Shown here: positions 9,188-32,326 of the stretch, piece by piece
Layout: each line of letters opens with the position of its first letter
Numbering within the stretch: the stretch's first letter is position 1
From: Bacillus gaemokensis
Lineage (GTDB): Bacteria > Bacillota > Bacilli > Bacillales > Bacillaceae_G
DNA: 64,000 bases
NCBI RefSeq assembly: GCF_001590835.1
Contig: NZ_LTAQ01000023.1
Span: forward strand, 228,970 to 292,969
Direction: 5' to 3'
Program-made: the position numbers and the translations under genes
Notes under the pieces: generated by a model
What the model saw: only the letters and a program-made list of their open reading frames with translations
Told to the model about the DNA's origin: nothing
Database searches by the model: none

Positions 9188-9188
9188 A

Positions 9189-9217: not shown

Positions 9218-9251
9218 TAACATGCGAGGTTCTCAGTAAAGGAGGGGTTAT

Positions 9252-9674: not shown

Positions 9675-9693
9675 AAAAAGGGAGATTACATCT

Positions 9694-10332: not shown

Positions 10333-10416
10333 TCTTAGAAAGTCATAATGACTCTATGATCCGTTCTGTTGGTTTTTCTTCATAGATATAAGCTGAAAAT
10401 GAGAGGGGAAAGAACC

Positions 10417-10716: not shown

Positions 10717-10737
10717 GGATTTTTTACTATAATAAAT

Positions 10738-10780
10738 AAACCCTCGATTACTCCGGAAGGAAGTTGCCGAGGGTTTGTTT
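10738..10780. terminator. Convergent terminator
   Basis: The stem AAACCCTCG/CGAGGGTTT separates the end of the marR operon from the minus-strand DUF4129 gene. T-rich flanks on both sides suggest bidirectional use. Confidence 0.75.
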
Positions 10781-11901: not shown

Positions 11902-13018
11902 CAGTGATGAGATAAGTTTTTTGCCCCATATTTGGTAATTCTGCTTTTTTTACGCCAATAAAAAATAGGATTGAAGAACGTTCTTTTTTTCTATTCAAAT
12001 AGTGCAAGAAATTTTCACGGGGAAGCAATGTACTATCATCTGAAATTCGGGCAAGCTCTTCTAACGCTTTTGCATATTGTACGTGTCCGTCATTTAAGGC
12101 GAGATGTAAAGGACCTTCTTCTGTAAATATACTAACAAATAATTCAAAAGGAATATGTTTCTCCGTTGCAAATCGACATAAATACGTTGTATAAGAAATA
12201 AGATCTTCGATATTTTCTCGCCAGCCAAACCCACGGTCTGCTCCTAAGCAAAGAGATATTGTCCAGCTGTAATTTTTTATTGCTTCATATTGTTTTGCTT
12301 GTAAATTTTGCATTTTAGCGGATGCTTTCCAATGAATGCTTCGAAAGGATTCTCTTTCATATTGTTTTATACCTACAATAGAGGATTCATCATGAAAATA
12401 AGAAAAGTTTGTTTTATAAGTACCTATTGCTAATTGATGAATTTCTTGTAAACTTGCAAGACGTTTCAAAGTAGGGTAGACAATAATCTCAGTCTTTAAT
12501 TTATCTATAGTAGGTAGATGAACTTGAATAATATGAAATGGATCACCTAATATACATTCAAACTGTTCAATTTTAAAAACACCACGTTTTGTAGCAGTAA
12601 ATGATAGTTCCCATTGTTGCCCTGATTTTGCAGGTTGTGAAAAGCGAAAAGAAAATAAAGTTTTAGATATTTGCTCAACACCAGTAGTTGTATGTGGCAC
12701 TAAGGTTGGATTGATATGTAAAAAACAGGTTCCATTTACTAAAGGAAGTTTTGCTTTGTTTTGTAAGTGAATCGATAAAGTCCCCGTTTCATTAGGGAAT
12801 AAGCGTGTTGTTTGTTTTTTATTGATAATCCGAAAGTTTGTATCTATGTATGCGGTATAGCGATAAATAAAATAAGCAAATAAATAGTAAAACAAGAATG
12901 GAATAACTAAAAATGAATTCGTTACATAAAAGGCTAGAAATAGAGCTACTGGGATTGTTAATTTAATAATATGGTGTTGAAAAAATAATGGAACGGTTAC
13001 AATTCGTGTGTAATTCAT
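11855..13018 (-). CDS. DUF58 domain-containing protein
   Basis: A 387-residue protein with two N-terminal hydrophobic segments (about 15-50). It has the DUF58 signature in the second half, REY-type FRSIHWKASAKMQNLQAK, preceded by SSIVGIKQYERE. DUF58 proteins are regularly partnered with MoxR AAA+ ATPases. Its ATG overlaps the MoxR stop by 4 bp (ATGA), showing translational coupling. It is probably membrane-anchored with a vWA-like domain. The biochemical role is not established. Confidence 0.9.
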   Translation of the reverse strand: MNYTRIVTVPLFFQHHIIKLTIPVALFLAFYVTNSFLVIPFLFYYLFAYFIYRYTAYIDTNFRIINKKQTTRLFPNETGTLSIHLQNKAKLPLVNGTCFLHINPTLVPHTTTGVEQISKTLFSFRFSQPAKSGQQWELSFTATKRGVFKIEQFECILGDPFHIIQVHLPTIDKLKTEIIVYPTLKRLASLQEIHQLAIGTYKTNFSYFHDESSIVGIKQYERESFRSIHWKASAKMQNLQAKQYEAIKNYSWTISLCLGADRGFGWRENIEDLISYTTYLCRFATEKHIPFELFVSIFTEEGPLHLALNDGHVQYAKALEELARISDDSTLLPRENFLHYLNRKKERSSILFFIGVKKAELPNMGQKTYLITDEGMVEQLETMAPLR

Positions 13019-13944
13019 GATTGCTCAATCTCCACGGGAACGTCCACTTCAGTTAAAATATTTTCAATTACTTTTTGTTTTGTTGTGCGCAAAGCACCCT
13101 CCATTGATAAAATCAGACGATGTTTCCATACGTAAGGAAGCAAGAATTGTATATCTTCAGGTGTACAGTATTCACGATCATGTAAAAAGGCTAATGCTTG
13201 TATTGCTCTGACTAAAGTAAGTGTTGCACGTGGACTAACACCATTAGCAATATGATCATGGTTTCGTGTAGCATTGGCAAGCTGAATGATATAGTATTCT
13301 AGCGGTTCGGATACATGTACTTCTTTTACCTTTTGTTGTACTTGTAAAATATCTTCTAAGGAGATAACAGAACGAACGTTATCTAAAGGTTTGTTATTCC
13401 GGAAACGGCGCATCATTTTTAGTTCATCCTCTGGAGAAGGATAGCCAATTGAAATAGTCATTAAAAAACGATCCAGCTGTGCATCTGGAAGAGGGAAAGT
13501 CCCTTGGGATTCAATTGGATTTTGCGTCGCAATGACAAAAAAAGGTTTCGGAAGAAGGGTGGACTTTTTTTCGAGCGTTACTTGTCGCTCTTCCATGGCT
13601 TCTAATAAACTAGATTGTGTTCTAGGCATGGCGCGATTTATTTCATCAGCTAATAATATATTCGTCATGACTGGCCCAAATCTTAATTCAAATTCACTTG
13701 TTTTTGGATTGAAATATTCAATTCCTGTTACGTCACTCGGCAGTACATCGGGTGTGAATTGAACACGAGAAAACTCGCCACCAATACTCTTCGCAATTGT
13801 TTTAGCAAGTAATGTTTTCCCTGTTCCAGGTACATCCTCAAGTAGTACATGACCATCTGCAAGCAATGAAACAAGAAGTAAATCAATCACATTTTCCTTG
13901 CCGACAAAAACAGAACCTATATTTTCTTTTAATTTATTTATCAT
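13015..13944 (-). CDS. MoxR-family AAA+ ATPase
   Basis: A 309-residue ATPase with Walker A (EDVPGTGKT, about 36-44), Walker B (ILLADEIN), sensor region (FFVIATQNPIESQGTFPL) and the MoxR lid. MoxR proteins act as chaperone-like ATPases with vWA-type partners, here the DUF58 product. The start is the second ATG (13944): GAAGGG lies 9 bp from it but directly abuts the first ATG at 13953. It is the first gene of a three-gene operon. Confidence 0.93.
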   Translation of the reverse strand: MINKLKENIGSVFVGKENVIDLLLVSLLADGHVLLEDVPGTGKTLLAKTIAKSIGGEFSRVQFTPDVLPSDVTGIEYFNPKTSEFELRFGPVMTNILLADEINRAMPRTQSSLLEAMEERQVTLEKKSTLLPKPFFVIATQNPIESQGTFPLPDAQLDRFLMTISIGYPSPEDELKMMRRFRNNKPLDNVRSVISLEDILQVQQKVKEVHVSEPLEYYIIQLANATRNHDHIANGVSPRATLTLVRAIQALAFLHDREYCTPEDIQFLLPYVWKHRLILSMEGALRTTKQKVIENILTEVDVPVEIEQS

Positions 13945-16247: not shown

Positions 16248-17291
16248 ATGGAAGTATTGAATTTGACCAGTAGAAAAAGGGAGACATATGACGTTCAAAT
16301 CAAGTATTCATTACTTTTTGAATGTGCGCTTGGGATTGCGGCGATTACTCATAAAAGACTTATTGATACGTTAGAGAAATCTCAAAGTGAGTGGGAAGAG
16401 ATTAGACAATCATTATCAGTGGAAATGCTGGAACATTTACATTTTGTAGAGAAGCATAATACGTGGAAAGCGTTGTTACAACTATTATATCAAGAAGATT
16501 TTACGGATTTACCTGAGTTTATTCAGTATGTAAATGCAATATCAGAAGAGGATTTAAAATGTGTATGTCTTCCGTTTGTAGGGTATAAATATCAAGAAAC
16601 AAGAAAGAAGGCAGCGATTGGAGAACAGGAAGCCATGCAGGAATTAAAAGAGATAACGAGTAATAATCGATTTTATCCCGCTTATATTGATTTCATATGT
16701 AAAGCGGACGTGAAGCTACTCAAAGAGCACCTTATTGCTGTTATGACCGGATGGTATGAAGTTGTGATTGAACCCGCAGCAGACAAACTGTTATGTATAT
16801 TACAACAAGACTATGAAACAAAATGTAAAATGAACGAAAAGATGCAGGCCGAAGAATTTGTGGAATGGGCGACAGGTGGCGTTACATATTTACCAGAACC
16901 AAGTGTACATCAGGTTCTTCTTATCCCGCAATATACGTATCGTCCTTGGAATATTGAAGCAGATATTGAGGATACAAAAGTATTTCATTATCCAATTGCG
17001 AATGAAAGCATAAACTCGGAAGACCCATATCAGCCAAACTACTTTTTAGTTCATAAGCATAAGGCATTGGGTGATGAAGCAAGATTACGCATTGTAAAAT
17101 TATTGTTCGAAAAAGATCGTACATTGCAGGAGATAACGGAACAATTAAAAATTGGAAAATCGACAATTCATCATCATTTGAAGATTCTTAGGTCAGCGAA
17201 ATTAGTCGATATTCAGGATTCTAAATATGTTTTGAAAAAGAAAGCAGTAGAGACTATATCGAAAGAGTTGGAACTTTATTTAAATCGTTGA
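16248..17291 (+). CDS. ArsR-family regulator with long N-terminal domain (DUF5937-like)
   Basis: A 347-residue protein whose last 80 residues are an ArsR winged helix: HKALGDEARLRIVKLLFEK, then LQEITEQLKIGKSTIHHHLK. The first 250 residues are a helical sensor-like region of the DUF5937 type. GGGGGG precedes the ATG. It lies 104 bp upstream of an MFS exporter in the same orientation, so it probably controls that transporter. No cysteine metal-sensing cluster is visible, so the ligand is probably not a classical thiophilic metal. Confidence 0.85.
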   Translation: MEVLNLTSRKRETYDVQIKYSLLFECALGIAAITHKRLIDTLEKSQSEWEEIRQSLSVEMLEHLHFVEKHNTWKALLQLLYQEDFTDLPEFIQYVNAISEEDLKCVCLPFVGYKYQETRKKAAIGEQEAMQELKEITSNNRFYPAYIDFICKADVKLLKEHLIAVMTGWYEVVIEPAADKLLCILQQDYETKCKMNEKMQAEEFVEWATGGVTYLPEPSVHQVLLIPQYTYRPWNIEADIEDTKVFHYPIANESINSEDPYQPNYFLVHKHKALGDEARLRIVKLLFEKDRTLQEITEQLKIGKSTIHHHLKILRSAKLVDIQDSKYVLKKKAVETISKELELYLNR

Positions 17292-17395
17292 GTATGAAAT
17301 TGTATTTGTACATCCAAGGGTAAAAGATAAAATGATTTTACCTTTATAGAACATGCACAGTAGGAGGGAAAATAAAAAAGAAAAGTTGGTGCGAA

Positions 17396-18613
17396 ATGGG
17401 GAAAAACATTTTAAAAAATCGATCCTTCTTATTTATGTGGATTGGTAGTGCGATTTCTGAATTAGGCGGTGCATTCGGTACGCTATGCAATTCCATTCTT
17501 ATTTATCAATTAACAGGCTCAAAAATGGCTTTAGGAAGTATGTGGTTACTTTACTTTATTCCATCACTTCTTTTGCAACTTGTTATTGGTCCTTTCATTG
17601 ATAAGTGGAGTCGGAAATGGATTATGATTGTATCTCAGTGGACACGTGGACTCGCTTTTTTACTCCCTCTATTTATGATAATCATTGGAAATGTAGAAAC
17701 ATGGCATATTTTTGTTGTACAAATAATAGTGGGTTGCATCACCCCACTTTATGTACCAGCCAATCAAGCGATTACACCAACAATTGTATTAAAGGAAGAG
17801 CTACAAACAGCGAATGCTTATATTGATGGAATGGTTCGCCTTATGATGTTTTTAGCTCCTGTATTAGGAGGAATTGTTATTGAGTTTATAGGAGTAAAGC
17901 TGACTTTATTTTTCGTTTGTTTATTTCTATTTATAAGTGGTATTTTGCTATTGTTCATTCAGGAACATAGAGTAACTCAAACAGTTCGTAAAAGTTGGTT
18001 AAGGCAATCTATTGAAGGATTCACATATTATTTCAAACACCCTATTATTGTTTGGTTAAGTGTTTTTCTCACATTTGTTCAATTTGGAGTAGGTGTAACT
18101 ATGGTGATCAATCTTCCATATATAATAGATGAGTTTTCAGCAAGTTATGCTAGTTATGGATATTTTATGGCAGGTTTTCCCCTTGGATATGTAATTGGCT
18201 CTATACTTGTTGGGAAAGTGCGGTACCATAGTCGGCGTTTTCTAATGCTTGGGGCGTTATTAATAGGAGGAATAACATATATTGCACTAGGCCTGAATCA
18301 TAGTATCTTTTTAGCAATTATCATTGAAGTTGTAGCTGGTGTATGTATGGCGTTTTTTAATGTTCATAACACGACAATATGCCAACAAACTGTGCCAAAT
18401 GATATGATGGGGAAAATATTTTCTGTACGCTTATTTTTAATAAGAGGTGCGATGCCATTAGGTGTTCTAGTTGGGGGAGTATTGAGTGAAATATGGGGAG
18501 TAAGAGCGCTATATATATTGATTGGATTGGTTATATGTATAACATCAACTGTAGGTATGTTATTGTCATATTTTAAATTTCTCGATGAATCAATTGAGGA
18601 GAAATCGGCGTAA
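17396..18613 (+). CDS. MFS transporter
   Basis: A 405-residue transporter with about 12 hydrophobic helices. The MFS loop motif between helices 2 and 3 reads GPFIDKWSRKW, and a weaker pseudo-repeat, VGKVRYHSRR, lies in the second half. It follows the ArsR-type regulator and is its likely target. A good TAGGAGGG lies 27 bp upstream, too far to be its site. No other in-frame start exists, so the ATG at 17396 relies on a weak site. The probable role is drug or metabolite efflux. Confidence 0.9.
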   Translation: MGKNILKNRSFLFMWIGSAISELGGAFGTLCNSILIYQLTGSKMALGSMWLLYFIPSLLLQLVIGPFIDKWSRKWIMIVSQWTRGLAFLLPLFMIIIGNVETWHIFVVQIIVGCITPLYVPANQAITPTIVLKEELQTANAYIDGMVRLMMFLAPVLGGIVIEFIGVKLTLFFVCLFLFISGILLLFIQEHRVTQTVRKSWLRQSIEGFTYYFKHPIIVWLSVFLTFVQFGVGVTMVINLPYIIDEFSASYASYGYFMAGFPLGYVIGSILVGKVRYHSRRFLMLGALLIGGITYIALGLNHSIFLAIIIEVVAGVCMAFFNVHNTTICQQTVPNDMMGKIFSVRLFLIRGAMPLGVLVGGVLSEIWGVRALYILIGLVICITSTVGMLLSYFKFLDESIEEKSA

Positions 18614-18658
18614 TGTTTGGATTTTATATAATGGATAAAAATTAATAAATCGTTTTAA

Positions 18659-18688
18659 TTGAAAATAATTATCAAAATCAACTATAAT
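18659..18688 (+). promoter_or_regulatory. Fur box overlapping the hmoA promoter
   Basis: TGAAAATAATTATCA (18660-18674) matches the 7-1-7 Fur core TGATAATNATTATCA at all but one position. It overlaps a TTGAAA -35 (18659-18664), followed after 18 bp by TATAAT (18683-18688). This predicts iron repression of the next gene. Confidence 0.75.
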
Positions 18689-18732
18689 GAAAGAATACTA
18701 GAAGTATTTGCATACAAAAGGGAGTGGAATAT

Positions 18733-19059
18733 ATGTTTATCGAAACAAAAACGCTTACAGTAAAAGAAGGGACTTCAGATCTTGTTGTTCAACGTTTTTC
18801 GGGAGAAGGAATCATTGAAAAATTTGAAGGATTTATCGATTTAAGTGTTCTCGTTAAGAAGGCAAGAAGAGGGGACGAAGAAGTTGTTATTATGATTCGC
18901 TGGGAATCTGAAGATGCATGGAAAAACTGGGAGACAAGTGAAGAGCATTTAGCAGGGCATAGAGCAAGTCGCGGGAAGCCAAAACCAGAACATATTTTGA
19001 AATCTGAGCATGCTGTGTATTATGTGAAGGCTTCAAAATCAGCATATCAACAATCATAA
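18733..19059 (+). CDS. hmoA: HmoA-like haem-degrading monooxygenase (ABM fold)
   Basis: A 108-residue ABM-fold protein resembling Bacillus HmoA. It has the N-terminal strand MFIETKTLTVKEG, the helix VVQRFSGEG, and the central IRWESEDAWKNWETSEEHL followed by HRASRGKPKP. HmoA opens haem to release iron. The Fur box over its promoter supports a role in iron supply. The start ATG 18733 follows GGGAGTGG. A GTG 9 bp earlier is less well placed. Which residue ligates haem cannot be assigned here. Confidence 0.78.
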   Translation: MFIETKTLTVKEGTSDLVVQRFSGEGIIEKFEGFIDLSVLVKKARRGDEEVVIMIRWESEDAWKNWETSEEHLAGHRASRGKPKPEHILKSEHAVYYVKASKSAYQQS

Positions 19060-19585
19060 TCAAAAAAAGAAGGAAATAAATTTTGTAAAATAAAAGACAT
19101 AGAGGTGTCATGAAGCCTTTTAATACCAATGTCTTTTCTATAATATATGAAAGAATACATCACACAATATGTAGTGGTGTATTTTTTGTTTTATAAAACC
19201 TTTAAATGTACTCATATACTACAACTGCTAAATAAATTACCTTGAGAGTTTTTGATATATTTGTTCAAAGTTTATTTGGTATGTGTAATTTATTTAACAA
19301 GCACAAATAATATTACACATGTAAACAATATAAGTAAAAATCCATTGGGAATTCAGTCCTGCCTTGCGGGAGATAGGTACCGCCAATATTAAAAAAACTA
19401 TGTTAAGCAAAATAAATATGAAAAGATAATTCTAACCACATATAGGTAAATGTACAGATTTCAAAATGATACAGGCTGTAGAAAATGGGGGATGTTTTTA
19501 TGACTATAGTAGGTTGAAAAGATTGCATATAAGTATCTTGAAATTTATATAACAGAACTTTTAAGTATTATTTTTAATAGTAAAT
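19060..19585. other. Intergenic region with terminator and a GC-richer island
   Basis: It contains a loose hairpin at 19090-19137 and a good terminator at 19154-19188. On the minus strand a 28-codon fragment (about 19313-19400) reads NIGGTYLPQGRTEFPMDFY, locally richer in GC than its surroundings. This may be the remnant of an unrecognised gene. Nothing else was seen. Confidence 0.4.
19154..19188 (+). terminator. Rho-independent terminator
   Basis: AATACATCAC pairs with GTGGTGTATT (one G-T pair), followed by TTTTT. It probably ends the hmoA transcript. Confidence 0.7.
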
Positions 19586-19611
19586 GGAACAAAAAAATCT
19601 GTTATCTTGTC
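19586..19611 (+). promoter_or_regulatory. ECF-type promoter of the sigma gene
   Basis: GGAAC (19586-19590), 17 bp and TGTCTATA (from 19608) form a bipartite ECF sigma promoter. The same motif with the same 17-bp spacing stands before the beta-lactamase gene at 22886-22911. Autoregulation is the usual pattern for ECF genes. Confidence 0.72.
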
Positions 19612-19683
19612 TATATAATGGAGTCAATTATAAAACGCGAAGAAAGGTTTTTATGCTTATTTAAATAAGCTTGAGGTGTTGAG

Positions 19684-20208
19684 ATGGAACATAAGGTTAT
19701 TGAAAATTGTAATCATGATGAAATTGATTATGTTATAAGAACGCACTGGCAAGATGTATGGAATTATTCATTTATTATTACGAAAGATACACATTTATCA
19801 GATGATATAACTCAAGATGTGTTTATAAAAGTATTTAACAAGTGGGATTCATTTCGGAATGAGTCCTCTGTTAAAACATGGTTATTAAAAATTACAAGGA
19901 ATACAGCTTTAAATTATTTGAAGTCATCCTATTTTAAGAGGATTTCTTTAGTAAGTTTCTTTAAAAATGATAAGGATTATCCGTCAGCAGAAAAACAATT
20001 TTTTCAAAAAGAAAATATGGATGAAGTTTGGGACATTGTATTAAATTTGCCAAAAAAACATCGTGAAGTATTAATATTAGATGCAAAATATGAATTATCT
20101 TATGATGAAATTGCTGAAACATTAGGAGTTTCTATTGGAACTGTGAAATCTAGACTACATCGCGCTCGTGCACGGGTTTCAAAAATATTAGCGGAGGATG
20201 AATTATGA
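19684..20208 (+). CDS. sigP: ECF sigma factor, probable SigP
   Basis: A 174-residue ECF sigma factor with region 2 (DDITQDVFIKVFNKWDSF, about 40-60) and region 4 (HREVLILDAKYELSYDEIAE plus GTVKSRLHRARARV). Region 3 is absent, as in all ECF factors. It overlaps the next gene, a single-pass membrane anti-sigma factor, by 4 bp. In the B. cereus group, SigP-RsiP is activated by beta-lactams and controls beta-lactamases. The adjacent penicillin-binding proteins, a beta-lactamase gene and a shared promoter motif make this assignment likely. The symbol is by context, not by alignment. Confidence 0.8.
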   Translation: MEHKVIENCNHDEIDYVIRTHWQDVWNYSFIITKDTHLSDDITQDVFIKVFNKWDSFRNESSVKTWLLKITRNTALNYLKSSYFKRISLVSFFKNDKDYPSAEKQFFQKENMDEVWDIVLNLPKKHREVLILDAKYELSYDEIAETLGVSIGTVKSRLHRARARVSKILAEDEL

Positions 20209-21032
20209 ACAATGATAGAAAGCCGGATTGGTATAAAGAATTAAAAAGCGGGCCAATGAAACAGCCTCAAGACGAAGAGGAATTTATTTATAAAATAAAA
20301 CAATCTATATACCAAAATAGGGAAGAAGATAGTCCTAAATATAGACGGCCATTTCGGATAAAGATATTTACTGTTGCAGTTGTTCTAGTTTTTACAGTTG
20401 TGCTGTTTAACTCTCAACAATTCTGGCTTGGAAAAAATGAACCGCCTGTACAAAGTAGTACCCAAATTGAGGTTAAGGTAAAAGATGAATCTGATCAAGA
20501 TCAATCCCTAAAACAATTTATGGATGAATTAAATCAAAATACGATATTAAAAAATAAGAATGATTTATATAGAGTGCTGGATGAAAATTTTGTTTTTAAA
20601 GGAGAACAGTATAATAAAAATGATTGGAAGTTTGATGAAGATATTTTTCATGATATACAAGTAGCTCTTGCAATGGGCGGGGAATTTGTGAATGATACTA
20701 AAACATTATATAAAATACCTAGTGGATTGGCAGAAAGTAATCAAACAAAGAAGGAACGCTATGTGTATGCAACGGTTGTTGGAAAGGAAACGAAAGTTTT
20801 AGTTGAACCAAAGCGGGATTCACGTGTTATATATAGAGTGTCTAATGAAACAGTAAAAGCTTGGATTCCAGAAAAAACGAAGAATGATGGATATATAAAA
20901 ATAACAACAATCAATGGTTATACAGGCTATGTAGAAAAAGAGTATATTTCAATTGATATTAAGTATTCTTTCACTTTCGAAAAACAAAAGGATGGTATGT
21001 GGAAGATAAAAAATATAGATTCTATATGGTAA
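20205..21032 (+). CDS. rsiP: Membrane anti-sigma factor, probable RsiP
   Basis: A 275-residue protein with a cytoplasmic N-terminus of about 50 residues, one membrane segment (KIFTVAVVLVFTVVLF, about 53-68) and a large extracellular part with an SH3-like stretch near 190-250 (VLVEPKRDSRVIYRV, AWIPEKTKNDGYIKI). This topology suits an anti-sigma factor destroyed by regulated proteolysis. RsiP is known to be cleaved at site 1 and then by RasP when beta-lactams bind a sensor PBP. Its start overlaps the sigma stop (ATGA). It ends at a strong terminator. Confidence 0.78.
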   Translation: MNNDRKPDWYKELKSGPMKQPQDEEEFIYKIKQSIYQNREEDSPKYRRPFRIKIFTVAVVLVFTVVLFNSQQFWLGKNEPPVQSSTQIEVKVKDESDQDQSLKQFMDELNQNTILKNKNDLYRVLDENFVFKGEQYNKNDWKFDEDIFHDIQVALAMGGEFVNDTKTLYKIPSGLAESNQTKKERYVYATVVGKETKVLVEPKRDSRVIYRVSNETVKAWIPEKTKNDGYIKITTINGYTGYVEKEYISIDIKYSFTFEKQKDGMWKIKNIDSIW

Positions 21033-21067
21033 AAGAGACAGGTTCGATAAAGTGAACCTGTCTCTTT
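21032..21067. terminator. Convergent terminator
   Basis: The 14-bp stem AAAGAGACAGGTTC/GAACCTGTCTCTTT lies between rsiP and the minus-strand PBP gene, with its outer edge at the PBP stop. It can serve both. Confidence 0.85.
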
Positions 21068-22823
21068 ATTTTTTATTCTCTTTTTGAAAAGTATCCCAAG
21101 CGCTAAAAATTTTAGCTGCAACAGGAGCTGCCCCTTTTGTTCTGAAATCACCACCAGGAATAATAACAGAAATAGCGATTTGTGGATCTTTAGTAGGGGC
21201 ATATGCGATAAAAAGAGAATGATTTATAACCTTTTCTTGTTTGTTCGGTGACCCAGTTATTCCTGTTTTACCAGCAACGTCAAAAGGCAAGTTTTTAATT
21301 TCTTGTATATTGTTACTCATACCATTTTGTAAGACGTCCCAGAAACTTGCAGGATAATGATTTGAACTTTCTAAAATTGGTTTGAGTTCTTTCCTTTTTT
21401 TATCATTGTTATCAATGATAGCATTAACAATTTTAGGTTTGTATTTGTCCCCTTTGTTTGCCAGTGTTGCTGCGTATTGCACGAGTTGAAGAGGAGTATG
21501 CACTTCGTTTCCTCCCCAAGAGGCATTCAATAAAGCGGAAATGCCATTTTCAAACTTACCAGATGTATGTAATTTGTATTGTCCTGCTTCTTCGAAGGGT
21601 AAATCAACACCAGTTTTGGAACGGAGGCCAAATTGTTTTAAATAACTTGTCCAAATGGTTGCTACTTTGTCCAAATTCCCATTATTTTGATTAAATAATG
21701 GAATCGCTACTTTTGCTGTCATAAATGTATTGGATGAATTAATGATAGCTTGACTTGGTGTAATTTCACCAGTTGGAGTTCCAGCGGCATTGGTGATGTT
21801 ATTTTGATTATTATATTGAAAACTGCCTTTATCTAAATATGTATCAGCAGGTTTAAATAGTTTTTCGTTTAAACCAATTAAAATAGTAAGGGGTTTTATT
21901 GTTGATCCCATATTTACATAGGATTCATCATACTTTAATTTTTGGATCGCTTTATTTTGAGCAAGTAAATTTATGTGTTCCTTTTCAGAAGATGATAAAT
22001 GTGTATTTCGTATATTTGGATCAAAATCTGGTGAGTTTACCATAGTTAATATTTCTCCGGTTTTTACATCCATTACTACAGCATAACCGGCATTAGCATC
22101 GGGTGTTTTCTGAATTTGAGATTTTAGTGCTTCTTCTGTTTTTTGTTGAAGCTTATAATCTAGTGCTAGCTGAATATCTTTCCCTTTTTGGGGACTTTGG
22201 ATATTCCATAAGAACTTTTTATTTTTTAATTTAAAAGTGAGAGTTTTTCCTGGGACTCCTTTTAAATCGTTTTCATATTGAAGTTCAACCCCGTTTTTAC
22301 CAACAGGAACATAATTAGAATTAGAGCTGTTTTTTTCATAATCTACATACCCAATTACTTGTGAAGCAATTTCATGCTGTGGGTAAACACGTATCAATTC
22401 ATCTTTTATTATTACATTTTGAAATTTATTTTCGCTTATAAATGTTAACTCTTTATCATTTATGTTTGCCTGTAATAGTATTTCGCTTTTATTATGATGT
22501 TTACAAAATTTTTGTAATTTTGAATTTATGTCATCTACTGAAATTTTATGATGAAATGTGGATGAAAATTTATTTAAAAAACTTGATAGATCCGTTACCT
22601 CCTGATTGGTGGGACAGCCATTATTATAAACATAATACAGAGATTTTATTTTTTTATTTGTGGCTAGTATGACTCCATTTCGATCAATAATTTTACCTCT
22701 TTCAGTTGAAGAAGTTGTGATAGCAAACGAAATAAAACTTGTTTTGAATAAAATCGTTAAAACAACTCCTAAAATGAAAAAGATAGTTAAAATTATCCAT
22801 ATTTTCAATTTTGTATGTAACAT
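21066..22823 (-). CDS. Class B penicillin-binding protein (transpeptidase), possible PbpP-type sensor
   Basis: A 585-residue class B PBP: membrane anchor (about 8-28), a dimerisation/pedestal region (RGKIIDRNGVILA), and a transpeptidase domain with STIK (307-310), SSN (363-365) and KTG (in AGKTGITG). It cross-links peptidoglycan or, in the PbpP case, senses beta-lactams for SigP. It lies convergent to sigP-rsiP with a shared terminator. GGGAGG precedes the ATG. No ECF motif was found upstream. Of the three PBPs here it is the closest to sigP, but which one is PbpP cannot be decided by eye. Confidence 0.88.
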   Translation of the reverse strand: MLHTKLKIWIILTIFFILGVVLTILFKTSFISFAITTSSTERGKIIDRNGVILATNKKIKSLYYVYNNGCPTNQEVTDLSSFLNKFSSTFHHKISVDDINSKLQKFCKHHNKSEILLQANINDKELTFISENKFQNVIIKDELIRVYPQHEIASQVIGYVDYEKNSSNSNYVPVGKNGVELQYENDLKGVPGKTLTFKLKNKKFLWNIQSPQKGKDIQLALDYKLQQKTEEALKSQIQKTPDANAGYAVVMDVKTGEILTMVNSPDFDPNIRNTHLSSSEKEHINLLAQNKAIQKLKYDESYVNMGSTIKPLTILIGLNEKLFKPADTYLDKGSFQYNNQNNITNAAGTPTGEITPSQAIINSSNTFMTAKVAIPLFNQNNGNLDKVATIWTSYLKQFGLRSKTGVDLPFEEAGQYKLHTSGKFENGISALLNASWGGNEVHTPLQLVQYAATLANKGDKYKPKIVNAIIDNNDKKRKELKPILESSNHYPASFWDVLQNGMSNNIQEIKNLPFDVAGKTGITGSPNKQEKVINHSLFIAYAPTKDPQIAISVIIPGGDFRTKGAAPVAAKIFSAWDTFQKENKK

Positions 22824-22885
22824 AAAATCCTCCCTTATCCAGATTCTATTCTATCTTAAAATTTATTATTTTTTTTGTAAATGTG

Positions 22886-22915
22886 GGAACAACTTTATTA
22901 TTTGGATTGTCTATT
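22886..22915 (+). promoter_or_regulatory. ECF-type promoter before the beta-lactamase gene
   Basis: GGAAC (22886-22890), 17 bp and TGTCTATT (from 22908) match the sigma-gene promoter in both boxes and spacing. This places the beta-lactamase gene in the same predicted regulon. Confidence 0.7.
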
Positions 22916-22965
22916 AAGTGTAATAGCATTTTTAGAAAAAAGTTGCTAAGAAAGGAGCAATGATA

Positions 22966-23740
22966 ATGAAAAAGAAAATGATAGTAAAAATAGGTCTATG
23001 CGCAAGTATATTGGGGTTTAGCCAATTTGCAAGTTCAATATTTCCAGTGCATGCTGCGGAAAAAGTAGAGCAAATAAAAAACAAAGTTCAAGAGAAGGAT
23101 GTATCCATTTCACAGTTGCATCCAAAGGTATGGATGCATACAAGTGTTGGAGTAGTAAACGGAACACGTATTCCTGCAAATGGTTTAATTCTTGAAACGT
23201 CAAAAGGATTAGTGCTGATTGATACACCTTGGAATGATGCTCTTACAGATCAATTGTTTCAGCTATTAAAAAAATAATTTCCTAAAAAAGAGGTCACAGA
23301 GGCAATTATGACGCATGCGCATGACGATCGTATAGGGGACTAAAAAAGGTATCAATGTACACAGTACTGCTTTAACTGCTAAATTAGCAGAGCAACAAGG
23401 CTTTGATAAGCCTCTAGGAGATTTGAAGGAAATCGAAAATATGCGATTTGGAGATACAAAGGTGAAAACATATTACCCAGGAAAGGGACATACAAAAGAT
23501 AATATTACAGTATGGTTGCCACAGTACAAAATATTATTTGGAGGATGTTTAGTAAAATCTTTAGATACGCGAGAAATTGTACAAACTCCAGGTTCATATC
23601 TCTTTAATTGGTCAAAAGCTATAAAAAAAATAGAGGGGACCTACAAAAATAAAAACATTGTTGTACCAGGACATGGAGATCCAGGAGATAATCGTTTATT
23701 TACTCATACATTGGATTTACTAAAAAATTACAAAGGATAA
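22966..23740 (+). pseudogene. Metallo-beta-lactamase (BcII-type, subclass B1), disrupted
   Basis: Homologous along its whole length to B. cereus beta-lactamase II: signal peptide MKKKMIVKIGLCASILGF, then ISQLHPKVWMHTSVG. Zinc ligands are encoded at THAHDDR, GKGHTKDN, GGCLVKS and VPGHGD. Two lesions break it. A TAA stands at 23275-23277 where a lysine codon is expected. A deletion with frameshift near 23340 (after DRIGD) puts the rest, from GINVHSTALTAKL, in another frame. The start is ATG 22966, matching BcII, not 22960. The promoter looks like the SigP-type site. The product would be inactive unless the lesions are sequencing errors. Confidence 0.9.
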
Positions 23741-23968
23741 TATGAAGTTCGCATGATATAGAGTGACAGTCTAACGTATGTTTTGTAGATATGTATGAGA
23801 AATAGGAGGAGCTGCTTATGATAGAATGCGGTTTCTCTTATTTCATTTCGATATAGGAGAACGATTTCAATTTCTTTTACCTGTGAAGCTATCCAAATTA
23901 CAAGTTTATGAAAGAAGACAACATGTTAATAGGCATGAAATCCATAAAGAATAAAAAACGGAGGATTT
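23741..23968. other. Intergenic, only short frames
   Basis: An AGGAGGAG site at 23801-23815 precedes very short frames, a 12-codon one and a 43-codon frame starting MRFLLFHFDIGERFQFL. No family was recognised. It may be the leader of the PBP gene or gene debris. Confidence 0.3.
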
Positions 23969-26104
23969 ATGAAAAAACAAAAAGGAAAGAAACAGAAAAC
24001 ACATATTCCTATCCGATTAAATTTAATGTTTTTCTGTGTGTTTTTACTATTTTCAGCTATTATTATTCAGCTAGGAAAAGTACAAATCGTTGATGGAGAG
24101 ACTTATAAGAATCAAGTGAAAAAAAATGAAAATGCAACAACAAGTATTTCAGTTCCTCGAGGGAAAATTTATGATCGAGAAGGTAAACCAGTTGTTGATA
24201 ATAGACCCATTCGTACTATTACGTATACAAGATTGAAGGGAGTATCCTCTGAAAGTATTTTAAAAACGGCGAAAGATCTTGCAAATGTACTTGAAATACC
24301 AGAAGAAGACATAAGTAAGTTAACCGAGATAGATAAAAAAGATTTTTGGATGCAATTAAATAAGAAACGTGCCGAAGCAAAGATTACGAAGCAAGATGAG
24401 GAAAAGTTGAGAAAAAAGAGCATAGAGGGAAAAGAGTTAGATAAGAAAATTGAAGAGTTAAGACGAAAGCGTATTACAGAAGAAGAATTAGCAGAGTTAA
24501 CGCCACAAGATTTAAAAGTGTTAGCTATTAAAAGTAAAATGAGTTCTGGTTATCAAATGACACCACAAATTATAAAAAAAGATGTGACAGAGCCAGAGTA
24601 TACGAGGATAAGTGAAAATTTAGCAAAATTTCCAGGTGTAGATGCAACAGTTGACTGGGAACGTAATTATGTAAATGGTGATTTATTCCGTTCGGTATTA
24701 GGTAATATAACAAGCGCTGAAGAAGGACTGCCCAAAGAACACTTAGACTCTTATTTGGTACGTGGTTACAATCGTAATGATCGCGTTGGAAAAAGTTATA
24801 TTGAACAACGATATGAAGATGTATTACATGGAACAAAAGAAGAAGTTAAAAATACAACTGATAAAGCAGGAAACATTATTCAGACAGAAACAGTTTCTAA
24901 AGGAAAAAGTGGTAACAATTTGACATTAACAATTGATATGGAATTACAAAAGAAAGTGGAGGAAAGTATAGAAAAAAATTTAAGAGCTTTTAAAAGTTCA
25001 GAACCATTAATGGATCGTGCTTTTGTTGTCATGATGGATCCAAAAACGGGACAACTTTTATCTATGGCTGGTAAGAGGTTTGTAGAAAAAGATGGGAAAA
25101 CAGAAATAGAAGATTTTGCATTAGGCAACATGGTAACTTCTTATGAGTTAGGATCAGCTGTAAAAGGAGCTACTTTATTAACTGGATACCAAACAGGAGC
25201 TATACAATCAGGGACTCAATTTTATGACGTACCTATGAAGTTTAAAGGTACGAGATTTAAAAAATCATGGAATGTATCTGGATTTGGGAATATTAATGAT
25301 TTAAGGGCTTTACAAATATCGTCTAATGTATACATGTTTCATACAGCGTTACAAATAGCCGGAGTGAATTATGTACCAGATAGTTCATTGGATATTAAAC
25401 AAGCAGCATTTGACACAATGCGTTATTATTTTAAACAATTTGGTTTAGGAGTCCCAACAGGAATCAATTTACCGAATGAAATAACTGGGCAAACGAGGCA
25501 GAAAGATAGCCAACCTGGATTTTTATTAGATTTTTCTATTGGACAGTATGATACGTATACACCACTACAATTAGCACAATATATTTCAACGATTGCAAAT
25601 GGCGGATACCGAATGCAGCCTCAAATTGTCCAAGAGATTCGAGAACAAACAACAAAAAAAGAAGAGATTGGAAAAGTTATACAATCTATAGAGCCTGTTG
25701 TGTTAAATCGAGTGGATGCGAAGACAGAGTATATTGATCGAGTAAAAGAAGGTTTTAGATGGGTATTTCAAGAAGGCGATGGAACTGGTGTGAAATATTT
25801 CCAAAAGGCTCCGTATAAACCAGCTGGGAAAACTGGAACAGCTCAGACGGTATATGGAGGAGATAATAAAATTGGGAGGGATGAGAAGGGGAAACGTATT
25901 GATTGCTACAATTTAACATTAGTTGGATATGCTCCATATGATAATCCAGAAATAGCATTTTCTGTAGTAGTCCCTTGGGTTCATAACGATAAAGTTGGTA
26001 TTAATTCATTAATTGGAAAGGATATATTAGATATATACTTTGATTTGAAAAAGCAACGTATGAATGGCGAAGCTACCAATACAGATAGCTCTAATCAAAA
26101 TTAG
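23969..26104 (+). CDS. Class B penicillin-binding protein, PBP2-type transpeptidase
   Basis: A 711-residue PBP of the PbpA/PbpH type: basic N-terminus, membrane anchor (LNLMFFCVFLLFSAIIIQL, about 18-36), a pedestal starting SVPRGKIYDREG with a charged insertion near 120-170, and a transpeptidase domain with SAVK (396-399), SSN (451-453) and KTG (about 621). GGAGG precedes the ATG. It would cross-link side-wall peptidoglycan. It lies in the sigP island between the dead beta-lactamase gene and another PBP, with no ECF motif of its own seen. Confidence 0.9.
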   Translation: MKKQKGKKQKTHIPIRLNLMFFCVFLLFSAIIIQLGKVQIVDGETYKNQVKKNENATTSISVPRGKIYDREGKPVVDNRPIRTITYTRLKGVSSESILKTAKDLANVLEIPEEDISKLTEIDKKDFWMQLNKKRAEAKITKQDEEKLRKKSIEGKELDKKIEELRRKRITEEELAELTPQDLKVLAIKSKMSSGYQMTPQIIKKDVTEPEYTRISENLAKFPGVDATVDWERNYVNGDLFRSVLGNITSAEEGLPKEHLDSYLVRGYNRNDRVGKSYIEQRYEDVLHGTKEEVKNTTDKAGNIIQTETVSKGKSGNNLTLTIDMELQKKVEESIEKNLRAFKSSEPLMDRAFVVMMDPKTGQLLSMAGKRFVEKDGKTEIEDFALGNMVTSYELGSAVKGATLLTGYQTGAIQSGTQFYDVPMKFKGTRFKKSWNVSGFGNINDLRALQISSNVYMFHTALQIAGVNYVPDSSLDIKQAAFDTMRYYFKQFGLGVPTGINLPNEITGQTRQKDSQPGFLLDFSIGQYDTYTPLQLAQYISTIANGGYRMQPQIVQEIREQTTKKEEIGKVIQSIEPVVLNRVDAKTEYIDRVKEGFRWVFQEGDGTGVKYFQKAPYKPAGKTGTAQTVYGGDNKIGRDEKGKRIDCYNLTLVGYAPYDNPEIAFSVVVPWVHNDKVGINSLIGKDILDIYFDLKKQRMNGEATNTDSSNQN

Positions 26105-26187
26105 TAAAAATTTAGCATCTCTCTTTAGGAAAGATAATTATTACTAGGATTCAAGAAATTCTGTGTATATAAGATATAAAAGGATTT

Positions 26188-26307
26188 ATGAACAAGAGAA
26201 TAAAAGAATTAGATTTGATACGTGAAATAGCAGCTATTACAGTTGTTATTTCACATTTTTTTGATAATACCTTTGCTACCAGGCGATATGAAATTATCAA
26301 ATCTTAG
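26188..26307 (+). pseudogene. Truncated acyltransferase-3 family gene
   Basis: A 39-residue frame reads IKELDLIREIAAITVVISHF, the first membrane helix of acyltransferase-3 (OatA-like) proteins, then ends after FDNTFATRRYEIIKS. Full proteins have 350-600 residues. AAAAGG lies before the ATG. Only the 5' tip remains between two PBP genes. In intact form it might have been a peptidoglycan or sugar O-acetyltransferase. Confidence 0.65.
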
Positions 26308-26391
26308 ATTCTTATGGGCCAGTGAAGAACTAGTGGATATATACTACCTATGGCAATTTATTAATCTAATTAAAAGAAGGAGAAGATTGAA

Positions 26392-28377
26392 TTGAAAAAA
26401 ATATGGGGGCTACTTTTCTTTTGTTTCGTACTTGTGTTGGTAGGGTGTAATAAAGAAGAAACGCCAGAACAAGCATTTAATACGTATGTAAAAGCATGGA
26501 ATAAGCAAAAATTTGAAGATATGTATGATAAGTTATCAGAAAATGCCAAAAAAAACATTTCGAAAAAAGATTTTACGGAGAAATATGAAAAGATTTATGC
26601 GGGTATTGAAGTTCAAAATTTGAAAGTAGAAACAGGAAAAGTAAAAAAAGATAAAGAAGATAAAGGACCTTTTCTTTTTAAAGTGAGCATGGATACCGTA
26701 GGAGGAGAAATTTCTTTTTCGCATGAAGCAAAACTTGTTAAAGAAAAAGATGGAGATAAGGAATCTTGGAAAATAGATTGGACTCCAGATTTCATTTTTC
26801 CAGATATGAAAAAAGATTATAAAGTACGTATGCAGACAGAGCAAGGAAAACGCGGCGAAATATATGATCGAAATGGAAATGGACTTGCAACGAATGGAAA
26901 AGCAACTGAAATTGGGATTATTCCAGGAAAATTAGGAGAAGCGGCAGCTCAAACGAAAGAAACAGTAGCACAATTACTTAATATGTCTGTAGAAGAGGTC
27001 GACCAGAAGCTCACAGCAAAATGGATAAAACCAGATTCCTATGTACCAATTGGTATTTTACCAGAAGGGACAACGCAAAATGATTATATTTCGTTGGAAG
27101 GTGTTTCGTCTCGCCCAGTAAAAATTCGTACATATCCATTAGGAGAAGCGGCAGCGCACTTAACAGGGTATATTGGACAAGTAAATGCAGAGGAGTTAAA
27201 AACGCTTCAGAAAAAAGGATATCAAGCAGATGATTTAGTAGGTAAGAGCGGTTTAGAGAAAGTATTAGAAGATAAATTGCGCGGTGAAAAGGGTGGACGC
27301 GTATTTATGGAAGGTGTGAACGGAAAAGAGATTAAAAACTTAGCAAAAAAAGAAGCTCAAGATGGAAAAAATGTCACGTTAACAATTGATGCTGCAATTC
27401 AAGAAAAAATCTTTAATGAAATGAAAAATGAAGCAGGATCTAGTGCGGCGATCAATCCCAAAACAGGTGAAACAATTGCACTAGTAAGTAGTCCTGCTTA
27501 TAATCCGAATATGATAGTCAGAGGAGCATCAAAAGCACAACGTGAAGCATGGAATAATGATTTGAAAAAGCCAATGATAAATCGCTTCACACAGGCATTT
27601 GTACCAGGGTCTGTATTTAAAACAATTACAGGTGCAATTGGCCTGGAAACGAAAACGATAAATCCGAAGGAAGAATTTAAAATTGAAGGATTAAAGTGGA
27701 CAAAAGATTCATCGTGGGGAAATTACTATGTAACACGTGTGAAAGATGCTAGTCCAATTGATTTCGATAAGGCAATGAAGTACTCTGATAATATTTATTT
27801 TGCACAACAAGCTTTGAAAATAGGAAAAGATCAGTATTTAAGTGAACTTAAGAAGTTCGGATTTCATGAAAAGTTACCAATCGAATACGAATTTCCTATT
27901 TCAATAATTGCAAAAGATGGGATAAAAAATGATATTCAACTGGCAGACACAGGATACGGACAAGGACAAGTATTAATGACGCCTCTTCATTTGGCATTAA
28001 CATATGCACCGATTATAAATGAAGGAAATATTCCGTTGCCTTATCTTATAAAAGAAGAAAAAGAAGCGGAAAATTGGAAAGAAAATGTGATTTCTAAAGA
28101 AAGTCAAGGAATATTAAAGAATGCGTTAATAAAGGTAATTAATGATTCCGATGGTGCGGGGAGAATTGCTAAGGTTGATGGTATAACTCTTGCTGGTAAA
28201 ACAGGTACAGCAGAACTTAAAGAATCAAAAGAGGCGGATGGAAAAGAACTTGGATGGTTTGCAGCTTTCGATGCAAATGCACCGAATATGGTTGTTACCA
28301 TGATGATTGAAGATGTAAAGGGAAGAGGAGGAAGCAACGTTCCAGGTGAAAAAATAAAACATGTTTTTCAGAAGTGA
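26392..28377 (+). CDS. PbpC/MecA-like penicillin-binding lipoprotein
   Basis: A 661-residue class B PBP with a lipoprotein signal (lipobox LVGC near residue 19) and an N-terminal NTF2-like MecA_N domain (EETPEQAFNTYVKAW, about 25-140). Then come the pedestal (GKRGEIYDRNGNGLA) and a transpeptidase domain with SVFK (407-410), SDN (465-467) and KTG (603-605). The architecture is that of B. subtilis PbpC and staphylococcal MecA, low-affinity transpeptidases. The start is TTG at 26392 behind AAGGAGAAG. Its place next to sigP suggests a part in beta-lactam tolerance, which is inference. Confidence 0.9.
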   Translation: MKKIWGLLFFCFVLVLVGCNKEETPEQAFNTYVKAWNKQKFEDMYDKLSENAKKNISKKDFTEKYEKIYAGIEVQNLKVETGKVKKDKEDKGPFLFKVSMDTVGGEISFSHEAKLVKEKDGDKESWKIDWTPDFIFPDMKKDYKVRMQTEQGKRGEIYDRNGNGLATNGKATEIGIIPGKLGEAAAQTKETVAQLLNMSVEEVDQKLTAKWIKPDSYVPIGILPEGTTQNDYISLEGVSSRPVKIRTYPLGEAAAHLTGYIGQVNAEELKTLQKKGYQADDLVGKSGLEKVLEDKLRGEKGGRVFMEGVNGKEIKNLAKKEAQDGKNVTLTIDAAIQEKIFNEMKNEAGSSAAINPKTGETIALVSSPAYNPNMIVRGASKAQREAWNNDLKKPMINRFTQAFVPGSVFKTITGAIGLETKTINPKEEFKIEGLKWTKDSSWGNYYVTRVKDASPIDFDKAMKYSDNIYFAQQALKIGKDQYLSELKKFGFHEKLPIEYEFPISIIAKDGIKNDIQLADTGYGQGQVLMTPLHLALTYAPIINEGNIPLPYLIKEEKEAENWKENVISKESQGILKNALIKVINDSDGAGRIAKVDGITLAGKTGTAELKESKEADGKELGWFAAFDANAPNMVVTMMIEDVKGRGGSNVPGEKIKHVFQK

Positions 28378-28380
28378 CAA

Positions 28381-28413
28381 AAAAGAACCCTTTTATAAAA
28401 AGGGTTCTTTTTT
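28381..28413. terminator. Terminator after the PBP gene
   Basis: AAAAGAACCCTTTT pairs with AAAAGGGTTCTTTT and is followed by T residues. It lies 4 bp after the PbpC-like stop and 45 bp before the end of lsrF. Confidence 0.85.
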
Positions 28414-28457
28414 AGTAAAAAACATCATTTAAACATTCCAAAACGATGTTTTTTCTT

Positions 28458-29240
28458 TTAACTCTTCACTTCGTTATACAACTCCAGTCCTTCTTTCACA
28501 TTCAAGCCATTTTTGACAATACCATGTATCGCTTGAATCATTGCAGCTGGATGTTCAGACTGCCAAATGTTTCGTCCCATATCAACGCCAATGGCACCTT
28601 CTTGTAATGCTTGATACGTAATGGTTAAAGCGGCTTCGATTGAATCTAATTTTGGTCCTCCTGCAATGACGACTGGAGCAGGGCATGTGCTTGTGATTTT
28701 TTCAAATCCTTCGCAGTAATACGTTTTAATAATATCAGCACCCATTTCAACGCAGACGCGCGATGCAAGTGCTAAAAATCGTGCTTCTCGTTTTTGTAGT
28801 TCTTTTGCAACAGCTGTAATGCCGAGAACAGGTAAACCGTAATCATGTGCTTCAGAAACAACATTTGCTAGATTGGAAACTGTTTGTGTTTCATAATCGG
28901 AACCAACAAAAACAGATACACCAACTCCGGCCACATTTTGCCGCAATGCTTCCTTGATTGGTGTAACAATGGTTTCATTTGCTAAATCTTTGCCAACTAC
29001 AGTTGGTCCACCTGAAACACGTAAAACCATCGGTGTTTTGCAGTTTTCAGGAATACAAGCGTTTAGTACGCCTCTTGTTAAAAAGAGAGAATCGGTGTAG
29101 GGAAGTAAATTCTTCACTGTTTCTAAAGGTTGTTCTAATCCATGAATTGGACCTAAAAAATAACCGTGATCAATCGCTAACATAACAGCCTTTCCATCAG
29201 GTAATATTGTATTTAAACGATTTTGAAATCCCCAAGTCAT
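28458..29240 (-). CDS. lsrF: LsrF, phospho-AI-2 processing thiolase (aldolase fold)
   Basis: A 260-residue class I aldolase-fold enzyme. LsrF transfers acetyl from the phospho-AI-2 breakdown product to CoA. Landmarks are LAIDHGYFLGP, RVSGGPTVV, the likely Schiff-base lysine in DIIKTYYCEGF (K172), VIAGGPK and DMGRNIWQS. It is the last gene of the minus-strand arm lsrR-lsrK-cupin-lsrF, 6 bp after the cupin gene, and is cotranscribed. Confidence 0.93.
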   Translation of the reverse strand: MTWGFQNRLNTILPDGKAVMLAIDHGYFLGPIHGLEQPLETVKNLLPYTDSLFLTRGVLNACIPENCKTPMVLRVSGGPTVVGKDLANETIVTPIKEALRQNVAGVGVSVFVGSDYETQTVSNLANVVSEAHDYGLPVLGITAVAKELQKREARFLALASRVCVEMGADIIKTYYCEGFEKITSTCPAPVVIAGGPKLDSIEAALTITYQALQEGAIGVDMGRNIWQSEHPAAMIQAIHGIVKNGLNVKEGLELYNEVKS

Positions 29241-29246
29241 TGTAAA

Positions 29247-29609
29247 TCACTCCTTCGTTAAATTTGGATTTTCTGTTTGTACAGTATCTTTTTCTTGTAA
29301 ATGAGGTGACTTAATAAAGACAGCTTTAAAGATTTGATCTGAGTGGTTAATCAGATAGTGAGATTCATGAGGACGAACTTGTAAGACATCGCCTTGTTTT
29401 ACAGGAACTTTTTCATTATCAATATAGAAATCAATTTCACCTTCTAGAGCATAAAAAATTTCTTCACATGTTGTATGATAATGATTTTGAAACTCTTGAC
29501 CGGGCTGAATGACTACAATACCAAGGTCGATATTAGGGCCTTTCACTAAATATTTAGGACCATTGTTACCAAAGCGATAGGCGAAATCATCTTCATTTAC
29601 TTTGAGCAT
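29247..29609 (-). CDS. Cupin-domain protein within the lsr operon
   Basis: A 120-residue single cupin. Motif 1 is PGQEFQNHYHTTCEEIFYALEG, giving metal ligands H, H and E (written here only as a motif). Motif 2 is VRPHESHYLIN. ATG 29609 follows AAAGGAG, and the frame to 29654 has no site. It sits between lsrK and lsrF, among the genes for phospho-AI-2 processing, and no LsrG-like ABM gene is present in the cluster. It may isomerise or otherwise handle phospho-AI-2 in place of LsrG. That role is inference from position. Confidence 0.85.
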   Translation of the reverse strand: MLKVNEDDFAYRFGNNGPKYLVKGPNIDLGIVVIQPGQEFQNHYHTTCEEIFYALEGEIDFYIDNEKVPVKQGDVLQVRPHESHYLINHSDQIFKAVFIKSPHLQEKDTVQTENPNLTKE

Positions 29610-29634
29610 GTTGTTCACTCCTTTATGTAATGTG

Positions 29635-32129: not shown

Positions 32130-32326
32130 TCTCTTCATCCCTTTCAACAATTGACCGTTGCTTAAACATATGTGTTTATTTTTTTATTTATACCGTTAGA
32201 AGTAGCAATTGTTTTGAAGAAAAATGTGTTCTAGATATGAAAAAAGGGATATACAATGCTACAAAACAAGTAGAACAAAAAATCATTTTCTCAAAAATTG
32301 TTGTGTACAAAGGCAGGTGAAAAGGT
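32130..32326. promoter_or_regulatory. Divergent lsrR/lsrA control region
   Basis: This 197-bp AT-rich gap must hold two back-to-back promoters and LsrR sites. No single perfect operator or catabolite (cre) site could be picked out by eye. Confidence 0.5.

What the first reader, a model, noticed from the sequence alone, without database searches (positions are those of the whole stretch)
19586..22915. Same ECF promoter before the sigma gene and the beta-lactamase gene
GGAAC-N17-TGTCTAT occurs at 19586-19616 before the ECF sigma gene and at 22886-22915 before the BcII-type gene, with identical spacing. In the B. cereus group, SigP-RsiP is known to respond to beta-lactams and drive beta-lactamase genes. 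The two copies allow a regulon motif to be proposed directly from this window.
Basis: partly seen in the sequence, partly recalled or inferred. Interest (0 to 1): 0.7.

Follow-up and report, generated by a model that had tools for sequence, protein, structure and literature searches.

The report
Beta-lactam alarm promoter, one dead target
Two matching switch sequences sit before a bacterial stress-response gene and before a beta-lactamase gene; they fit a known penicillin-sensing system, but the beta-lactamase gene itself is broken, so its switch may now mainly serve a cell-wall gene behind it.

Summary
Confirmed: GGAACA-N16-TGTCTAT occurs at 19586-19614 and 22886-22914, the only exact copies in the window, 0 in 100 shuffles; the looser GGAAC-N15..19-TGTC is at chance. 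The locus is a SigP-RsiP-PbpP system: ECF sigma gene, overlapping anti-sigma gene with VQS at 82-84 as in B. thuringiensis, convergent PbpP-type PBP. The motif fits the published SigP consensus, so most of this is known. (2) No terminator-like site separates it from a class B PBP gene 228 bp on, so the promoter may now serve that PBP (inferred). (3) In other Bacilli a related motif precedes the sigma gene of close SigP relatives (15 of 29 held-out loci, 0.62 expected), and one genome has a dacA-pbp-sigP-rsiP-pbpP cluster behind GGAAC-N16-TGTCTAT, a spacer one base shorter. A new variant of a known kind; regulation itself was not tested.

The parts
19586..19614 (+). SigP-type ECF promoter of sigP-rsiP (GGAACA-N16-TGTCTAT); 69 nt between its end and the sigP start codon
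19684..20208 (+). sigP: ECF sigma factor, 174 aa, sigma-70 regions 2 and 4
20205..21032 (+). rsiP: anti-sigma factor, 275 aa, overlaps sigP by 4 bases; hydrophobic stretch about residues 54-68 (by eye), VQS at 82-84, weak SH3 match (below Pfam's cut-off) at 198-249
21032..21067 (.). 15-pair terminator-like hairpin between the convergent rsiP and pbpP
21066..22823 (-). pbpP-type class B PBP, 585 aa (PBP_dimer + transpeptidase; Ser307 of SxxK, SSN 363-365, KTG 519); putative beta-lactam sensor
22886..22914 (+). second SigP-type promoter (GGAACA-N16-TGTCTAT); 45 nt between its end and the start codon of the broken gene
22960..23740 (+). broken BcII-type subclass B1 metallo-beta-lactamase gene: stop after 105 codons, a second stop 66 bases later, and the C-terminal part in another frame
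23969..26104 (+). class B PBP (best NCBIfam model streptococcal PBP2B, 711 aa); candidate present target of the 22886 promoter by read-through (inferred)
26222..26254 (+). 14-pair terminator-like hairpin after that PBP gene
26392..28377 (+). MecA_N-type class B PBP (661 aa), 45% identical to the PBP next to sigP in locus L118; no SigP motif with up to 3 mismatches in the gap before it

Best explanation
This is the SigP-RsiP-PbpP beta-lactam response of a relative of the Bacillus cereus group. RsiP holds SigP inactive. When a beta-lactam acts on the PbpP-type PBP, RsiP is cut at VQS and then at a second site, and free SigP transcribes from GGAACA-N16-TGTCTAT before its own operon and at 22886 (mechanism taken from the B. 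thuringiensis papers; not shown here). The second promoter stands before a BcII-type metallo-beta-lactamase gene that is now dead. The promoter, still perfect, may make an RNA that runs on into the class B PBP gene at 23969 and ends near 26222 (inference, about 0.45; the confidence below is for SigP control of the two sites). Shown here: motif, gene order, VQS site, broken gene, lack of a terminator-like site, and a related motif before the sigma genes of close SigP relatives.
For: Motif: 2 in the window, 0 in 100 shuffles; only these 2 of 50 scored genes reach 13/13. Nine published SigP-dependent promoters share -35 AACA and a conserved TA in the -10. RsiP VQS at 82-84 is the site given for B. 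thuringiensis. A PbpP-type PBP lies next to rsiP. Held-out SigP relatives: GGAAC-N16/17-NGTCT within about 220 bp upstream in 15 of 29, expected 0.62; first set 12 of 19, expected 0.09 (pattern chosen on those loci); more distant ECF genes 0 of 13 and 0 of 8. L118 has dacA-pbp-sigP-rsiP-pbpP on one strand behind GGAAC-N16-TGTCTAT. Read-through: no terminator-like site from 22960 to 23969, one at 26222. SigP-dependent class B PBPs are known in B. thuringiensis.
Against: No transcription data. The motif-free pair test is not significant. The L118 spacer is one base shorter than the window's. In G420 the pattern GGAAC-N15..17-TGTCTA occurs 3 times against 10 for the reversed control, so no wider regulon is visible there. 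The terminator scan finds no more sites than shuffles do (3 against 3.8), so both presence and absence of sites are weak evidence; the 228-nt gap folds somewhat better than shuffles (z -1.76, 9 of 200). The PBP is of a type found in all 19 outgroup genomes searched and could have its own promoter.
Confidence: 0.8

Rival explanations
1. Rival to the read-through part only: the promoter before the broken gene is a recent fossil. SigP may still start RNA there, but nothing useful is made, and the PBP at 23969 has its own promoter.
For: The gene is broken. A sigma-70-like site (9 of 12) lies at 23795-23822, the gap folds somewhat better than shuffles, and it holds a 42-codon ORF with no family hit.
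Against: The motif is still 13/13. Sigma-70-like sites are at background (48 found, 47.2 expected) and no terminator-like site lies in the gap.
Confidence: 0.35
2. The two sites are read by another ECF sigma factor of the cell, not by the sigma factor encoded here.
For: The AAC core of the -35 is shared by many ECF groups.
Against: A related motif is found before the sigma genes most like this one and hardly before more distant ECF genes (strict pattern 0 of 13 and 0 of 8; looser pattern 1 of 13 and 0 of 8).
Confidence: 0.07
3. The match is a coincidence of AT-rich upstream DNA.
For: The loose pattern is at chance, and 21 of 1225 pairs share an equally long two-block word.
Against: The full motif has 0 matches in 100 shuffles, agrees with the published consensus, and a related form is enriched in held-out relatives.
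Confidence: 0.03
4. The metallo-beta-lactamase gene is intact and the breaks are sequencing errors.
For: One break lies near short homopolymer runs; no reads or second assembly could be seen.
Against: There is more than one interruption, and after the first stop the related reading goes on in the same frame.
Confidence: 0.12

Closest known systems
SigP-RsiP-PbpP system of Bacillus thuringiensis/B. cereus (PMC8791391, PMC8092216, PMC8844934)
   Same: ECF sigma and anti-sigma operon, PbpP-type PBP next to rsiP, RsiP VQS 82-84, promoters with AACA and TA, beta-lactamase and PBP genes as targets
   Different: A BcII-type gene, now broken, sits in the locus where published isolates have PBPs and bla1 (PMC12959158); the genes scanned from 16248 to 29240 include no class A beta-lactamase
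BcII (bla2) of the B. cereus group (PMC12959158)
   Same: BcII is the best NCBIfam model of both end pieces; an HxHxD motif is in the middle piece
   Different: Pieces 36/74 and 54/100 identical to BcII chains against 86-100% among published isolates; beside sigP, where published BcII is not; broken
L118 cluster in an unnamed Bacilli genome (G420, family of G352)
   Same: SigP (54%), RsiP-like, PbpP-like and MecA_N PBP (45%) genes together, behind GGAAC-N16-TGTCTAT
   Different: One-strand cluster led by a D-Ala-D-Ala carboxypeptidase gene; spacer one base shorter; sensor PBP only 377 aa without a PBP_dimer match; no metallo-beta-lactamase match by tblastn in the 13.4 kb seen (class A not searched there)
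BlaR1-BlaI beside a B1 metallo-beta-lactamase gene (Metabacillus plasmid, L080)
   Same: A B1 enzyme gene next to beta-lactam-sensing genes
   Different: BlaR1 and BlaI annotated, no sigma gene annotated in the 12.3 kb seen

Membership tests
SigP-RsiP-PbpP system | ECF sigma factor with regions 2 and 4 only | tested here: met
   Pfam Sigma70_r2 and r4_2, 174 aa
SigP-RsiP-PbpP system | Anti-sigma factor encoded directly after the sigma gene, one membrane helix | tested here: inconclusive
   Overlapping ORF, aligns along its length with the L118 protein (26%); helix judged by eye, no predictor run
SigP-RsiP-PbpP system | RsiP site-1 motif VQS at residues 82-84 | tested here: met
SigP-RsiP-PbpP system | PbpP-type class B PBP next to rsiP | tested here: met
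   Transpeptidase + PBP_dimer, Ser307 of SxxK (Ser301 in B. thuringiensis PbpP), convergent with rsiP; no direct comparison with the B. thuringiensis protein was possible
SigP-RsiP-PbpP system | Promoter of sigP with AACA -35 and TA in -10 | tested here: met
   (sequence only; autoregulation itself not tested)
SigP-RsiP-PbpP system | Subgroup ECF265c2 | not testable with these tools
   No ECF subgroup models at hand
SigP-RsiP-PbpP system | Induction by beta-lactams through RsiP cleavage | not testable with these tools
   Needs experiment
BcII metallo-beta-lactamase | Best family model is BcII, subclass B1 | tested here: met
   NF033095 is the top hit of both end pieces (102.5 and 128 bits), below the full-length cut-off of 500
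BcII metallo-beta-lactamase | Intact open reading frame | tested here: not met
BcII metallo-beta-lactamase | Identity within the published 86-100% range | tested here: not met
   36/74 and 54/100 to the best PDB chains; range

The most novel reading that the evidence does not exclude
The SigP promoter has outlived its beta-lactamase: the dead gene is now a leader through which SigP induces a class B PBP, a shift from destroying the drug to replacing its target. The sigP-rsiP-pbpP unit is also not confined to the B. cereus group but exists elsewhere in Bacilli as a self-contained cluster with a cut-down sensor PBP and nearly the same promoter.
Probability: 0.4. Interest if true: 0.55.

Novelty: new variant of a known kind. 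Interest (0 to 1): 0.42.

Why it matters
It gives a natural case in which a regulated promoter stays perfect while its resistance gene has decayed, which makes it testable whether the downstream PBP is the real present target. The relatives suggest that the recognition motif belongs to the SigP clade and not only to the B. cereus group, and the L118 cluster points to a compact beta-lactam-sensing unit outside that group. On print: five searches of the held library (listings seen, passages read from five papers) gave no paper on an RsiP-PbpP unit outside the B. cereus group; the search for RsiP, PbpP and Paenibacillus together gave 0 papers. The library lacks most subscription papers. One passage says that the wider ECF265 group is found mainly in Firmicutes, about half with a one-helix anti-sigma factor (PMC8092216), so SigP relatives as such are not new, and the papers that define that group were not read.

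Tried and rejected

Close relatives of RsiP in genome contigs: 26 pattern stretches, none a relative. With the PBP at 23969: 21 loci, best 59-60% (Bacillus sp. 165, Ectobacillus panaciterrae), none titled as a B. cereus-group species. So keeping or loss of the motif in close relatives could not be tested. RsiP gave 0 of 19 genomes in the family of the Ectobacillus genome. In 398 Bacilli genomes it gave 4 matches at E up to 0.001. The best is a stand-alone lipoprotein-like protein with no SigP match in the 20 kb seen; of the others, L087 and L088 have an ECF sigma gene nearby and L086 (7.7 kb) has none, by tblastn.

Plasmid and viral collections: no near DNA match to 19000-26000, no RsiP, no SigP relative in viral contigs.

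Neighbourhoods of 19 SigP relatives: no RsiP, PbpP or metallo-beta-lactamase by tblastn at 1e-3. Of 18 more neighbourhoods, 1 has RsiP and PbpP (L118). A search of 104 genomes with the RsiP pair found only that one, which is itself in the profile. A PbpP-pair search in 398 genomes gave matches in 96 at 1e-60, mostly general PBPs by score; L118, itself in the profile, led with 588 bits against 319 for the next.

Further SigP sites in the window: 66 matches with up to 3 mismatches against 53.9 expected; none in the gaps before the PBP genes at 23969 and 26392.

Structure prediction was not run.
Full report
What was checked. Each is GGAACA-N16-TGTCTAT, 29 bases, at 19586-19614 and 22886-22914, that is GGAAC and TGTC 17 bases apart. 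The exact motif occurs twice in the window and never in 100 dinucleotide shuffles. Of 50 genes scored with 200 bp upstream (51 listed by me from the ORFs, overlapping ORFs left out, one gene too near the window's end), only the sigma gene and the beta-lactamase gene score 13 of 13; the next score 9. Against this, the loose pattern GGAAC-N15..19-TGTC is at chance (3 found, 1.04 expected, 9 of 100 shuffles reach 3). When no motif is named beforehand, 21 of 1225 pairs of upstream regions share an equally long two-block word. So the two copies by themselves are weak, and outside evidence is needed.

The genes. sigP (19684-20208) is an ECF sigma factor. rsiP (20205-21032) overlaps it by 4 bases. 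Its residues 82-84 are VQS, the site-1 motif that the B. thuringiensis work places at residues 82-84 of RsiP (PMC8844934, passages read). Next, convergent and behind a 15-pair terminator-like hairpin (21032-21067), lies a class B PBP with PBP_dimer and transpeptidase domains, Ser307 in SxxK and KTG at 519. B. thuringiensis PbpP lies immediately downstream of sigP-rsiP and has active-site Ser301 (PMC8092216, passages read). These features make the locus a SigP-RsiP-PbpP system with good confidence, although the ECF subgroup and the response to beta-lactams could not be tested.

The motif against the literature. PMC8791391 (abstract, passages, and sections 7 and 14 read) reports that nine SigP-dependent promoters share a strong AACA in the -35, while the -10 varies more but has a highly conserved TA, and that earlier work found identical -35 and -10 elements before bla1, bla2 and sigP of B. 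anthracis. That earlier paper is not held, and the figure with the aligned promoters is not held either, so the window motif was compared with the text only. It fits. SigP-dependent targets there include four beta-lactamases and the PBPs PbpM, PbpN and DacC, while pbpP is not SigP-dependent.

The beta-lactamase gene is broken. The ORF from 22960 stops after 105 codons; the next piece in the same frame carries an HxHxD motif and stops after 21 codons; the C-terminal part lies in another frame. Both end pieces have the BcII model as best hit (102.5 and 128 bits against a full-length cut-off of 500). They are 36 of 74 and 54 of 100 residues identical to the best PDB chains (counted). PMC12959158 (passages read) reports BcII 86-100% identical at the amino acid level among isolates, sigP and rsiP absent near BcII, and sigP, rsiP, two PBPs and bla1 together across 48 isolates. 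The window therefore differs from that arrangement: a diverged BcII-type gene in the sigP locus, now dead. One prolyl hydroxylase of the window is 160 of 211 identical to the best PDB chain, which I recall to be from B. anthracis. The source is therefore probably a distant relative or outlying member of the B. cereus group (inference); the species was not determined.

What the second promoter may do now. Between the dead gene and the class B PBP gene at 23969 there are 228 bases without a terminator-like site; the next such site is at 26222-26254, after that PBP gene. The scan finds no more terminator-like sites than shuffles (3 against 3.8) and sigma-70-like sites only at background (48 against 47.2), so it is weak evidence both ways. 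The reading that SigP RNA runs through the dead gene into the PBP gene is inference. The gap folds somewhat better than shuffles (z -1.76, 9 of 200) and holds a 42-codon ORF with no family hit in Pfam or NCBIfam, so other control is possible. The PBP is of a type present in all 19 genomes searched of the Ectobacillus family (16 with one match at 1e-60, 3 with two), so its link to SigP rests on position alone.

Relatives. Since no locus titled as a B. cereus-group species came up, I looked at more distant SigP homologues. In 19 of them (36-51% identity; 18 stretches plus L031), GGAAC-N16/17-NGTCT lies within about 220 bp upstream of the sigma gene in 12, against 0.09 expected; GSAAC-N16/17-NGTC in 16, against 0.27; a form with TGTC or CGTC in 3, against 0.20. 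The first two patterns were chosen after a first look at the same loci. More distant ECF genes gave 0 of 13 and 0 of 8 for the strict pattern, and 1 of 13 and 0 of 8 for the looser one (one locus left out as already counted). The background is random windows of the same loci, the loci are related to each other, and no tree correction was made. The motif thus appears to belong to this sigma clade, with the base before GTC free to vary.

A unit elsewhere. Before the first gene lies GGAAC-N16-TGTCTAT, a spacer one base shorter than in the window and with T instead of A after GGAAC, 74 bases from the start of the motif to the likely ATG. Resampled L118 sequence gave 0.0 such sites on average over 300 resamples. 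An RsiP-pair search found no second one in 104 genomes of that family. In the whole of G420 the pattern GGAAC-N15..17-TGTCTA is not enriched (3 against 10 for the reversed control); of the two other sites one lies across the end of one ORF just before the next and the other inside a reverse ORF. So no wider regulon is shown there.

Verdict. It is mostly known biology with an unusual, decayed target and a new outgroup. A working-copy test of the broken gene is referred.

Noticed in passing
L118 (G420:C26), 7226-13165, minus strand: dacA-pbp-sigP-rsiP-pbpP cluster behind GGAAC-N16-TGTCTAT in an unnamed Bacilli genome of 56% G+C, with a sensor PBP lacking a PBP_dimer match
   Followed up: partly
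L085:10085-10969: Lipoprotein-like protein similar to the extracellular region of RsiP (26-29% over about residues 80-269) with a weak SH3 match, and no SigP match in the 20 kb seen
   Followed up: partly
L088, about 9045-10812: ECF sigma gene followed by a protein with an RsiP-like extracellular region (25%)
   Followed up: no
window 23818-23954: By eye a good ribosome-binding site before a 12-codon ORF, and an overlapping 42-codon ORF, in a predicted hairpin between the dead gene and the PBP gene
   Followed up: partly
window 6969-8957: Translation-factor-like GTPase that by eye looks like a tetracycline ribosomal-protection protein (not searched)
   Followed up: no
window 28458-36829: lsr-type operon: LsrF family, with kinase, regulator, ABC transporter and binding protein by eye
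   Followed up: no
L080:2485-6306: Metabacillus plasmid with a B1 metallo-beta-lactamase gene divergent from blaI-blaR1, a different control beside the same enzyme class
   Followed up: no
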